From: Ilex aquifolium
Lineage: Eukaryota; Streptophyta; Magnoliopsida; Aquifoliales; Aquifoliaceae
Length of the DNA stretch: 64,000 nucleotides
Direction of reading: 5' to 3'
NCBI GenBank assembly: GCA_951799425.1
Contig: OX637402.1
Coordinates: forward strand, 27,062,492-27,126,491
Below the pieces are notes generated by a model, which saw only the letters and a list, made by a program, of their open reading frames with translations, was not told the DNA's origin and searched no databases. The position numbers and the translations under genes are program-made. Shown here one piece after another: positions 3,002 to 12,325 of this stretch (positions are counted from its first letter, which is position 1; each line of letters begins with the position of its first letter).

Positions 3002-3030
3002 CACTACAACAAAAATCGTTTTTTGCGACG
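3002..3030 (+). repeat. CACTA left terminal inverted repeat
   Basis: Begins CACTACAACAAAAATCG and runs into the first GCGACG motif. It matches the reverse complement of 12297-12325. Confidence 0.93.
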
Positions 3031-3860
3031 ATTTTTTTCGTCGCTAAATACAAAACAATCGTCGCAAATTACTTTTCGCGACGTTTTTTTTTTCGTCGCG
3101 TCTTCGTCGCAATAGCCTCGTCGCAGAAAGTATTTTGCGACGCAAAATTATTTTCATCGCAAAAAAAATTTTTTGCGACGAAAAAAAAACGTCGCCAAAA
3201 GTAAAAAAAACGTAGCTAAAATCTATTCCACCAACGTAACAAAATAAAAAATAATAATTAAATTACTTTTTTGCGACGTAAAAAAATCGTCGCGAATAAT
3301 TTTTTACATAAATAAAAATGTAAAAAAAAAAATTTATTTTATTTTTTGCGACGTAAAAAAATCGTCGCGAATAATTTTTTACATAAAAAAAATAAAAAAA
3401 AATAATTTAATTAATTTTTCGCGACGTAAAAAAATCGTCGCGAATAATTTTTTACACAAATAAAAATGTAAAAAAAATAATTTAATTAATTTTTCGCGAC
3501 GTAAAAAAATCGTCGCGAATAATTTTTTACACAAATAAAAATGTAAAAAAAATAATTTAATTTATTTTTTGCGACGTAAAAAAATCGTCGCGAATAACTT
3601 TTTTAAAAAATAAAAAGTAAAAAAGAATAATTTATTTATTTTTTAGCGACGTAAATAAATCGTCGCGAATAATTTTTTTAAAAAAAAATAAAAAATAATA
3701 ATTTAATTAATTTTTCGCGACGTAAAAAAATCGTCGCGAATAATTTTTTTCAAAAATAAAAATGTAAAAAATAATTACATTTACGACGTATAGAAATCGT
3801 CGCAAAAAAATTGTTCTTGCAATTTTTCGCAACGATTTTAATTTCGTCGCAAAAAAGCTA
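3030..3860. repeat. Left subterminal repeat array of the CACTA element, about 75-bp period
   Basis: Seven copies of a unit containing GCGACGTAAAAAAATCGTC start near 3273, 3348, 3421, 3496, 3571, 3646 and 3717, spaced 71-75 bases. Each core is an inverted repeat (GCGACG ... CGTCGC), so each unit can form a small hairpin. Degenerate copies lie on both sides. Confidence 0.88.
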
Positions 3861-4198
3861 ATTTTTTTTTTAAAATAATTCATAAAAAATGATATTCCAA
3901 TAAAAATTTACACCTGTACACTAATAATACCTGTGTTCAATAAAAAACTAACACAATTAATACATTTCACATCTTTTTAAAAAAAAAAAAAAAATTTATT
4001 TCTAAAAAGAATGAATTACAAGAATCAAAGAACAAGAAGTTCTTAAAATTGAAAAAATGGCTTTAATCCTTCAAGAGGATTTAAAGCATCTCTAATTACA
4101 TTTAATGTCTCTTAAACTTGAACAGCTCCAGCAATCCAGCTCCATGCATGTGTACATTCCAAGATTGTGGAATCCAGAGTGTATCTCCTTGTTTTCAG
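3861..4198. other. CACTA interior, no gene recognised
   Basis: AT-rich sequence between the left repeat array and the NUP98 fragment. Bases 4100-4198 may be altered flanking sequence of the captured gene, but I cannot assign them. Confidence 0.4.
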
Positions 4199-4488
4199 TC
4201 AAATGCATAGAGTTTCTAATAAAGCACCAAACACTGGTGTCGATGATAAAGGCGAAGAAGATTGGGTTGCACCAAACACACCAGTAGAAATGCCACCAAA
4301 AATGGAACCCCCTGTTTGTGAACCAAAAGGGGATGTACTGCCGAAGGGTTTAGGAGCAAATGGATTGCCACTTGCATTGTTAGTCTGCCCAAAAACTGAT
4401 TGGGACCCAAAAGGGCTGCTTCTAGGTGACTGTCCAAACGGGCTATTAGATGACTGCCCAAACGGGCTACTAGATGACTGCCCGAAAA
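4199..4488 (-). pseudogene. NUP98: Captured NUP98 nucleoporin fragment (FG-repeat exon)
   Basis: Read on the minus strand from an apparent acceptor (TTTACAG, exon starting at 4488), the frame gives tightly spaced FG dipeptides: FGQSSSSPFGQSSNSPFGQS, then FGSQSVFGQT, NPFAPKPFGS, GGSIFGGISTGVFGATQ and SSTPVFGA. The NPFAPKPFG and STGVFG motifs are typical of the GLFG/FG N-terminal region of plant NUP98, which lines the nuclear pore channel. About 90 residues are present. The frame leaves recognisable homology after VFGA and stops about eight codons later. There is no start codon context, autoproteolytic domain or Gle2-binding region, so this is a fragment carried by the CACTA element. Another FG nucleoporin is possible but less likely. 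Confidence 0.75.
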
Positions 4489-9792: not shown

Positions 9793-10019
9793 CGGTGAGT
9801 GAGAGAGAGAGTGTTGGAAAGGGGAATGTGAAGAAGAAGGGGAATGTAACATTTTACTTCTAATTTAAAAGTACAAAAAATTGAGTTCGCGACGAATGTA
9901 AAACGTCGCCAAATAATAATTTTATTCACCTCCCGCCATCTTTCGGGCCAAAAATAAAATGGGAGGGAATTATATTTTCGCGACGTTTTCCAAAAACGTC
10001 GCAAATGAAATTGTCAAAA
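9461..10019. repeat. GA/CT-rich low-complexity region and an outlying CACTA subterminal palindrome
   Basis: Imperfect GA runs (about 9633-9648, 9686-9698, 9758-9788) lie near the 5' side of the third fragment. They could be the CT-rich leader of that donor gene on the minus strand. From 9885 a GCGACG...CGTCGC pair recurs (9888-9912 and 9978-10002), marking the return to transposon-end sequence. Ser-Leu-repeat ORFs here are artefacts of the GA runs. Confidence 0.6.
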
Positions 10020-11130
10020 TAGGAAATTTGCAACAAATTAACATGTAATTTATCAAATTAACACCAAATTAACATTAAGATTTAAGTAGTTAACATTAAA
10101 CTAATCAAATAAACTTTCAATTTTATTCAATTAACACTCAATTTCATCAAATTAACATCCAATTCATCAAATTAACATTTAGATTTAACCAATTGGCATT
10201 CAATTTCATCAAATTAACATGTAACTTCATTCAATTAAAATTTAATTTATCAAATTAAAACAAAATCAACATTCAATTAATCGAATTAACACAAATTAAC
10301 ATTCAGATTCAAGTAGTTAACATTAAATTAATCAAATAAACTTTCAATTTCATTAAATTAACATTCGATTTATCAAATTGATATTCAATTTCATCAAATT
10401 AACATTCAATTTATTAAATTGACATTCAATTTCATCAAATTAACATGTAATTTCAACAAATCGACTTTCAATTTCATGAAATTAACATTCAATTTATCAA
10501 ATTGACATTCAATTTCATCAAATTAACATTCCATTTATGAAATTGACATTCAATTTCATCAAATTAACATGTAATTTCATCAAATCGATTTTCAATTTCA
10601 TTAAATTAACATTCGATTTATCAAATTGACATTCAATTTCATCAAATTAACAATCAATTTATGAAATTCACATTCAATTTCATAAAATTAACATGTAATT
10701 TCATCAAATCGACTTTCAATTTTATCAAATTAACATTCGATTTATCAAATTGACATTCCATTTCATCAAATTAACATTCAATTTCTGAAATGGATATTCA
10801 ATTTCATCAAATTAACATGTAATTTCATCAAATCGACTTTCAATTTTATAAAAATTAACATGTAATTTTATCAAATCGACTTTCAATTTCATTAAATTAA
10901 CATTCGATTTATCAAATTGACATTCAATTTCATCAAATTAACATCTAATTTATCAAATTGACATTCAATTTATGAAATGGATATTCAATTTCACCAAATT
11001 AACATGTAATTTCATCAAATCAACTTTCAATTTCATTAAATTAACATTCGATTTATCAAATTGACATTCAATTTCATCAAATTGACATTCCATTTCATCA
11101 AATTAACATGTAATTTCATCAAAATTGACT
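10020..11130. repeat. AT-rich minisatellite in the CACTA element
   Basis: About 1.1 kb of a simple variable repeat with a submonomer of about 20-21 bases, such as TCAAATTAACATTCAATTTA, mixed with variants ending GACATTCAATTTCA and CGACTTTCAATTTCA. Larger blocks beginning ATTCGATTTATC recur near 10363, 10611, 10735, 10902 and 11046. It has no coding potential. Confidence 0.9.
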
Positions 11131-12296
11131 TTCAAAAACGTCGCTAAAACTCAGTTGCATTTGATTTTTTTAAAATTTTTTATTTAAGTAAATTGATTAT
11201 TTGCGACGTTTTTTAAAAACGTCGCTAAAACTCAGTTGCATTTGATTTTTTTTTAAATTTTTTATTTAAGTAAATTGATTATTTGCGACGTTTTTTAAAA
11301 ACGTCGCCAAAACTCAGTTGCATTTGATTTTTTTTAAATTTTTTATTTAAGTAAATTGATTATTGGCGACGTTTTTGAAAAACGTTTTTAAAAAAGTCAG
11401 TTGCATTTGATATTTTTTAAATTTTTTATTTAAGTAAATCGATTATTTGCGACGTTTTTAAAAAACGTCGCGAAAAGTTAAGTGTATTTGATATTTTTTA
11501 AATTTTTTATTTAAGTAAATCGATTATTGGCGACGTTTTTGAAAAACGTCGCGAAAAGTCAAGTGCATTTGATTTTTTTAAACTTTTTTATTTAAGTAAA
11601 TTGATTATTGGCGACGTTTTTGAAAAACGTCGCGAAAACTCAGTTGCATTTGATATTTTTAAAATTTTTTATTTAAGTAAATCGATTATTTGCGACGTTT
11701 TTAAAAAACGTCGCGAAAAGTCAGTTGCATTTGATATTTTTTAAATTTTTTATTTAAGTAAATCGATTATTGGCGACGTTTTTAAAAAACGTCGCTAAAA
11801 GTCAAGTGCATTTGATATTTTTTAAACTTTTTATTTAAGTAAATCGATTATTGGCGACGTTTTTAAAAAACGTCGCGAAAAGTCAAGTGCATTTGATTTT
11901 TTTAAACTTTTTTATTTAAGTAAATCGATTATTGGCGACGTTTTTAAAAAACGTCGCGAAAAGTCAAGTGCATTTGATTTTTTTAAACTTTTTTATTTAA
12001 GTAAATTGATTATTGGCGACGTTTTTAAAAAACGTCGCGAAAAGTCAAGTGCATTTGATTTTTTTAAAATTTTTTATTTAAGTAAATTGATTATTGGCGA
12101 CGTTTTTAAAAAACGTCGCGAAAAGTCAATTGCATTTGATTTTTTTTAAATTTTTTATTTAATTAAAGTGATTATTGGCGACGTTTTTTAAAAACGTCGC
12201 TAAAAAAATTGCCAAAACTGAAATTTGCGACGAAATTAAAAAATCGTCGCTAATAGTAAACTATTTGCGACGAATTTAAAAACGTCGCAAAAAAAA
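11130..12296. repeat. Right subterminal repeat array of the CACTA element, about 82-bp period
   Basis: About 13 copies of an approximately 82-base unit: GGCGACGTTTTTAAAAAACG (a near-perfect palindrome GCGACGTTT...AAACGTCGC), then GTCAAGTGCATTTGAT and TTTATTTAAGTAAATTGATT. The unit shares only the palindromic core with the left array. Copies are very similar, implying recent array expansion. Confidence 0.92.
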
Positions 12297-12325
12297 CGTC
12301 GCAAAAAACGATTTTTGTTGTAGTG
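12297..12325 (-). repeat. CACTA right terminal inverted repeat
   Basis: Ends CGATTTTTGTTGTAGTG, the reverse complement of the left end, and is followed by the target duplication CAC at 12326-12328. Confidence 0.93.

What the first reader, a model, noticed from the sequence alone, without database searches (positions are those of the whole stretch)
3002..12325. 9.3 kb Pack-CACTA with three captured host gene fragments
Perfect CACTA ends and a CAC duplication enclose NUP98, calnexin and an unidentified gene fragment, all in the same orientation, with introns retained. Capture of genomic (not cDNA) pieces from several loci by one CACTA element is a route to chimeric transcripts.
Basis: partly seen in the sequence, partly recalled or inferred. 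Interest (0 to 1): 0.75.

Follow-up and report, generated by a model that had tools for sequence, protein, structure and literature searches.

The report
Holly Pack-CACTA carrying four gene pieces
A stretch of a holly-like plant genome is a jumping gene that has collected broken pieces of four ordinary plant genes from four chromosomes, and sister copies in the same genome suggest the order in which they were picked up.

Summary
The finding holds and can be sharpened. Window 3002-12325 is an intact, non-autonomous CACTA element: perfect 29-bp terminal inverted repeats and a CAC target duplication. The cargo comes from four loci, not three, on four contigs of the same genome: NUP98 (C13), calnexin (C14), an unidentified gene that I think is ELP5 (C8; recalled, not confirmed) and the bromodomain factor GTE4 (C4), all in one orientation. 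Pieces are genomic; calnexin keeps introns but has lost 1279 bp.

A second full copy (C20) differs by 1 mismatch in 5963 aligned interior bases and has another target duplication, so the element moved as a unit recently. A third copy (C7) is an internal-deletion derivative. Two relatives carry GTE4 (C2, interior partly unassigned) or GTE4 plus the C8 gene (C9), with shared junctions: a nested series. Three joins show 3-4 bp microhomology. A transposase-bearing relative with similar ends exists.

New member of a known kind (Pack-CACTA; closest precedent soybean Tgm-Express1). No sign that the pieces encode working proteins; expression untested.

The parts
2999..3001 (.). target site duplication CAC, left copy
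   Evidence: sequence
12326..12328 (.). target site duplication CAC, right copy
   Evidence: sequence
3002..3030 (+). left terminal inverted repeat, 29 bp perfect
   Evidence: 331+312 sites with up to 2 mismatches in the genome, 0+0 for the reversed control pattern
12297..12325 (-). right terminal inverted repeat, 29 bp perfect
3002..4217 (.). transposon-own left part with subterminal GCGACG/CGTCGC repeats (26 in 3002-3900)
   Evidence: 3900-4217 recurs at many genome places at 85-97%
4219..5159 (-). captured NUP98 piece (coding match 4486-4223 plus non-coding sequence upstream of it), parent C13:33011146-33012048 at 99%, continued at C13:33010959-33011005
   Evidence: a paralogous place on C4 (1579959-1580842) matches at 91%
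5160..5184 (.). 25 bp without an assigned parent
5185..8174 (-). captured calnexin gene (255 bp upstream of the ATG at 7919 through the 3' flank), parent C14:27115325-27119780; 95.5% and 97.3% in the two main blocks, only 78% in the 3' flank (5185-5637)
6395..6396 (.). junction of the 1279-bp internal deletion (C14:27117081-27118359 missing: end of intron 2 into exon 3)
8171..8868 (-). captured piece of a fourth gene, parent C8:6330767-6331511 at 93%; resembles Elongator protein 5 by recall only
   Evidence: no convincing Pfam or PDB match
8866..9353 (-). captured GTE4 (bromodomain transcription factor) piece, about residues 102-264 of the Ilex protein, with a stop and a frameshift; parent C4:38803550-38804039 at 97%
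9351..12325 (.). transposon-own right part; 9351-9842 recurs at many genome places at 87-92%
10090..11135 (.). about 50 copies of a 21-bp tandem repeat
11130..12205 (.). about 13 copies of an 81-bp subterminal repeat with GCGACG/CGTCGC; copy number differs between the C12 and C20 copies

Best explanation
The stretch is a Pack-CACTA: a non-autonomous CACTA transposon whose interior is a mosaic of four host gene pieces captured as genomic DNA. Shown: the ends, duplications, four parental loci, a nearly identical second copy, a deletion derivative, two relatives holding one or two of the pieces with the same junctions, and microhomology at three joins. Inferred: pieces were added one after another; the element is moved by a Tnp2-type transposase supplied in trans by a family member with similar ends; new host DNA was added between the older cargo and the left transposon end by error-prone repair or fusion with another copy, trimming older cargo. 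The pieces are passengers and most likely pseudogenes; they could be spliced into chimeric transcripts if transcribed from right to left, which was not tested.
For: 29-bp inverted repeats, CAC duplication. Five elements of the lineage each with its own 3-bp duplication: CAC (window), TTG (C20), GCT (C7), ACG (C9), TAT (C2). C20 copy: 1 mismatch and 9 gap columns in 5963 aligned bases of 3901-9870, no homology between the flanks compared. Parents on C13, C14, C8, C4. Window, C9 and C2 share the GTE4/right-end junction and 8 substitutions against the parent; window and C9 share the GTE4/C8-gene junction and 6 of 8 substituted sites. Microhomology TCTG, AGG, TCA at three joins. No transposase family in the 10 ORFs scanned, of 101 ORFs of 40 aa or more. 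Relative C2:51201812-51217280 has family ends, duplication AGT and a Tnp2-type match.
Against: Divergence from the parents does not follow the inferred order of capture: GTE4 11/488, C8 gene 8/698, calnexin intron 2 25/1226, NUP98 9/903. Calnexin's outer parts are more diverged than its core: 20/254 upstream, 78% identity in the 3' flank. The interior of the C2 relative (about 40281168-40284420) was not assigned: the search did not complete. Left-end similarity disagrees with the cargo grouping and with itself: over 3426-4217 the window is 4.4% from C2, 6.0% from C2:39607479 and 9.2% from C9, yet over 3900-4217 the nearest listed is C2:39607479 at 97% with C2 at 90%. The left-end/NUP98 and NUP98/calnexin joins show no clean microhomology. 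The Tnp2 match changes frame once, so activity is not shown.
Confidence: 0.93

Rival explanations
1. Native neighbouring genes that happen to be flanked by CACTA ends, i.e. an insertion around a real gene cluster.
For: The calnexin part covers promoter to 3' flank and keeps introns.
Against: Parents are on four different contigs; pieces are truncated and broken; the same block sits at C20 with other flanks.
Confidence: 0.01
2. Capture by fusion of two neighbouring insertions (the model given in PMC8903248 and attributed there to Catoni 2019): at each host gene two copies flanked the gene, the inner ends were lost, and the hybrid moved on. This is a rival to repair with template switching, not to the Pack-CACTA reading.
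For: Left and right parts have discordant closest relatives, as a hybrid would. A perfect family end lies about 14 kb from the GTE4 parental piece, though with 643 ends in 800 Mb this is only mildly unexpected. The model is described in PMC8903248 section 9.
Against: No family end (14-bp exact) or end homology in the fetched parental stretches (C4 7.0 kb, C13 6.5 kb, C14 8.5 kb, C8 24.0 kb in three pieces), while the same test rings in C9 and C7; parents need not keep remnants, so this is weak. Joins with 3-4 bp microhomology between unlinked loci fit template switching as well.
Confidence: 0.35
3. The mosaic is, or is becoming, a working chimeric gene, for example a short calnexin with signal peptide and membrane anchor but no lectin and P domains.
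For: Exons 1-2 rejoin the rest in frame across the chimeric intron, giving a 227-aa predicted reading; all five introns are GT-AG.
Against: C-terminus frameshifted; GTE4 piece has a stop and a frameshift. Codon differences from the parent before the frameshift: 3 nonsynonymous, 1 synonymous, as expected without selection, though few.
Confidence: 0.04

Closest known systems
Tgm-Express1 (soybean CACTA; PMC1947982, abstract and Background read)
   Same: CACTA element with intronic and exonic pieces of several unrelated host genes (five there, four loci here).
   Different: Tgm-Express1 sits in an intron of F3H and its pieces are shown to be spliced into chimeric transcripts; here transcription is untested and no gene was identified at the insertion site (nearest found: laccase-like genes from 15.6 kb), but sister copies suggest the order of capture.
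Pack-CACTA / Pack-TYPE elements (PMC8903248: abstract, section 5 part 1, sections 8, 9, 10 read; Catoni 2019 not held)
   Same: [quoted passage not shown] stepwise growth is described there for a maize PIF family, with similar CACTA examples mentioned.
   Different: Here 9.3 kb with four loci from four contigs, and relatives with fewer pieces in the same genome.
CACTA captures in wheat 3B (PMC4290129, passages) and grapevine (PMC2528002, passages)
   Same: Capture of host gene sequence by CACTA elements; 140 events reported on wheat 3B.
   Different: Other species and families; here the parental loci and possible intermediates of one element are laid out.

Membership tests
CACTA (En/Spm) superfamily | terminal inverted repeats beginning CACTA | tested here: met
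   29 bp perfect
CACTA (En/Spm) superfamily | 3-bp target site duplication | tested here: met
   CAC; sister elements TTG, GCT, ACG, TAT. The usual 3 bp is recalled; PMC8903248 section 8 gives 5 nt for the CACTA elements it annotated in rice and maize
CACTA (En/Spm) superfamily | subterminal short repeats at both ends | tested here: met
   GCGACG/CGTCGC 26 in 3002-3900, 4 in 9871-10015, 31 in 11136-12325, none in 3901-9870 or 10016-11135; that this defines the superfamily is recalled
CACTA (En/Spm) superfamily | Tnp2-type transposase in members with the same ends | tested here: met
   C2:51201812-51217280, one of three fetched candidates; end stretches 86-88% alike; frame changes once, activity not shown
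Pack-CACTA | no transposase of its own | tested here: met
   10 of 101 ORFs scanned with Pfam, no transposase; and 3900-9842 is accounted for by host pieces and recurrent transposon-own sequence, apart from short joins
Pack-CACTA | host gene sequence with parental copy elsewhere | tested here: met
   four parental loci
Pack-CACTA | moved as a unit after capture | tested here: met
   C20 copy with other duplication and unrelated flanks
Pack-CACTA | chimeric transcripts from the cargo (reported for some, not required) | not testable with these tools
   no RNA data held

The most novel reading that the evidence does not exclude
The lineage records serial, one-sided accretion: each new host piece was added between older cargo and the left end by microhomology-mediated template switching during repair, with exchange of left ends between copies, so that C2, C9, C12/C20 and C7 represent successive stages of one growing and then shrinking element.
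Probability: 0.4. Interest if true: 0.55.

Novelty: new member of a known kind. Interest (0 to 1): 0.4.

Why it matters
How cut-and-paste transposons acquire several unlinked host pieces is still modelled rather than observed. Here one genome holds the parents, two relatives with fewer pieces, two nearly identical recent copies and a deletion derivative, with base-level joins, so rival capture models can be compared on a single lineage. Otherwise it is ordinary for plant genomes.

Tried and rejected
Native gene cluster: rejected. Retro-copied cDNA: rejected, introns present. My first inference that the acceptor before 6396 was a native exon border was wrong: the parent has codons 54-425 in one uninterrupted match, and the acceptor-like AG comes from inside intron 2. 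Empty site within the window's own duplications: none seen; the joined flanks matched elsewhere in the window only over 99 bp. Rfam: no match. Exact end pattern in viral contigs: 0 stretches for 29 bp; 1 for 17 bp (L001), whose surrounding 311 bases show none of the element's repeats, taken as chance. Identity of the fourth gene: Pfam and PDB gave no convincing match, and the Elong_Iki1 family search of the genome gave nothing, the control genomes being silent too, so it is uninformative; ELP5 is recalled only. Stretch 4020-4215 was searched as a possible gene and later proved to recur as transposon-own sequence. tRNA scan of L028: none, of no use.

Full report
Observation. The element runs from 3002 to 12325 (9324 bp). 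Its ends match perfectly for 29 bp in inverted orientation and are flanked by CAC on both sides. GCGACG/CGTCGC motifs are dense at both ends (26 in 3002-3900; 31 in 11136-12325; 4 in 9871-10015), absent from 3901-9870 and 10016-11135, and rare outside (0 in 1-3001, 9 in 12326-64000). The genome holds 331 + 312 sites matching the 29-bp end with up to two mismatches, and none for the reversed control pattern, so this is a large family.

Organism. The best protein matches for calnexin and GTE4 are from Ilex paraguariensis (P0001, 89%; P0121, 88%); for NUP98 the Ilex protein P0127 has the highest identity (95%) but is the third row by E-value, after two Camellia proteins of 74-75% identity. The genome has 800 Mb in 103 contigs. 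I infer a holly or close relative; the species was not determined.

Cargo and parents. A whole-genome DNA search with 3900-9900 (40 of 982 candidates scored), with finer mapping, gives, left to right: transposon-own sequence to 4217; NUP98 4219-5159 from C13; 25 bp unassigned; calnexin 5185-8174 from C14; a piece of a fourth gene 8171-8868 from C8; GTE4 8866-9353 from C4; transposon-own sequence from 9351. All four pieces read on the minus strand. The joins calnexin/C8 gene, C8 gene/GTE4 and GTE4/right end show 4, 3 and 3 bp shared by both sources (TCTG, AGG, TCA). The left-end/NUP98 join has a few unassigned bases and the NUP98/calnexin join 25; they show no clean microhomology. The C7 deletion join shares about 1 bp by eye.

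Calnexin in detail. The piece starts 255 bp upstream of the start codon. Coding identity to P0001 is 184 of 195 compared residues, against 152 of 195 for its paralogue P0002. In the parent, codons 54-425 form one uninterrupted match. The element lacks C14:27117081-27118359 (1279 bp), from inside intron 2 into that exon. A TTTTAG already present in intron 2 now stands where an acceptor could work, and the predicted splice keeps the frame, giving a 227-aa reading with signal peptide and membrane anchor but without the lectin and P domains (domain names recalled); the last exon is frameshifted. Codon differences from the parent before the frameshift are three nonsynonymous and one synonymous. Nothing suggests selection for a product. 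The GTE4 piece has a stop and a frameshift.

Copies. C20:25885975-25895964 is a second full copy. Over seven aligned segments covering 3901-9870 there is 1 mismatch in 5963 aligned bases, with 9 gap columns. Outside it the counts are 2/899 (left end), 1/145, 1/1120 (21-bp array), 24/1068 (81-bp array) and 1/120 (right end), and the arrays differ in copy number; the longest single BLAST alignment (9273 columns) gives 97.9%. Its right end has one mismatch in the inverted repeat, its duplication is TTG and its flanks are unrelated to those of the window copy. C7:14408739-14414185 is a derivative lacking about 5613-9988, 99.8% identical over 3002-5612, with duplication GCT. The lineage therefore moved recently, long after capture, since the pieces differ from their parents by 1.0-2.3% in the stretches compared (GTE4 11/488, C8 gene 8/698, calnexin intron 2 25/1226, NUP98 9/903), and more in calnexin's outer parts (20/254 upstream; 78% identity in the 3' flank).

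Order of capture. C2:40276293-40285962 (duplication TAT) holds a longer GTE4 piece; comparison of 40278500-40286500 with the fetched C8, C14 and C13 stretches gave no match, but its interior from about 40281168 to 40284420 is unassigned. C9:30019384-30028194 (duplication ACG) holds GTE4 and a longer C8-gene piece in several segments, and no match to the fetched calnexin or NUP98 stretches. Window, C9 and C2 share the GTE4/right-end junction and eight substitutions against the parent; window and C9 share the GTE4/C8-gene junction and 6 of 8 substituted sites. So I infer that GTE4 came first, the C8 gene second, calnexin and NUP98 later, each between older cargo and the left end, with trimming of the older piece. 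Against a simple clock, the C8 gene is less diverged from its parent than calnexin is. Left ends do not follow the cargo: over 3426-4217 the window is 4.4% from C2, 6.0% from C2:39607479 and 9.2% from C9, while over 3900-4217 the nearest listed is C2:39607479 at 97%, with C2 at 90%. This suggests exchange of ends between copies but is not resolved.

Movement. The element has no transposase among the 10 of 101 ORFs scanned. The genome has at least 151 Transposase_21 matches. Of three candidate places that I fetched, C2:51201812-51217280 has family ends, duplication AGT and a Tnp2-type match that changes frame once; C1:18941598-18952499 has both ends but no such match; C2:41418177 has a match but no right end within the fetched stretch. 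So a transposase source with similar ends exists or existed. None of the fetched parental stretches (6 loci, 46.0 kb) holds a family end or end homology, while the same test rings in C9 and C7.

Comparison. Soybean Tgm-Express1 carries intronic and exonic pieces of five genes and yields chimeric transcripts (PMC1947982, abstract and Background). Pack-CACTA elements with several loci are described for Arabidopsis and maize (PMC8903248, sections as listed), CACTA captures for wheat (PMC4290129, passages) and grapevine (PMC2528002, passages), and capture models are reviewed in PMC13317346 (passages). CACTA is reported as the second most abundant TIR superfamily in three Ilex genomes (PMC11435385, passages). 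A search for Ilex with gene capture and transposon found no paper in the held library; of 8 papers with Ilex, genome assembly and CACTA I looked into one, by terms, and found no gene capture there. The kind is known; this member and its capture series were not met in these searches.

Verdict. Confirmed and extended: a Pack-CACTA with four captured loci and relatives that look like earlier stages. Interesting as a worked example of stepwise capture, not surprising in kind.

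Noticed in passing
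window 15578-16627, 35890-36978 and 63191-64000 (minus strand): Laccase-like (multicopper oxidase) coding stretches, two confirmed by Pfam, the third by 96.7% DNA identity to the first, amid repeated blocks offset by about 19-20 kb.
   Followed up: partly
window 1286-1735, 47322-49121, 55164-56323: CCACCACCG-rich blocks recurring within the window in both orientations.
   Followed up: no
window 9351-9652; G000 C20:12514229-12514529 and C2:5923486-5923786: A 302-bp piece of the transposon-own right part recurs at 99% with the same limits at two places that show no other similarity to the element and no family ends in the 9.0 and 9.5 kb stretches fetched around them.
   Followed up: partly
window 10951-12222 against the G000 C20 copy: The 21-bp and 81-bp arrays are 145 bp and six 81-bp units longer in the C20 copy, although the interior is nearly identical, so the subterminal arrays change fast.
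   Followed up: partly
G000 C4:38789127 (+): A perfect family end lies about 14 kb from the GTE4 parental piece; with 643 ends in 800 Mb this is only mildly unexpected.
   Followed up: no
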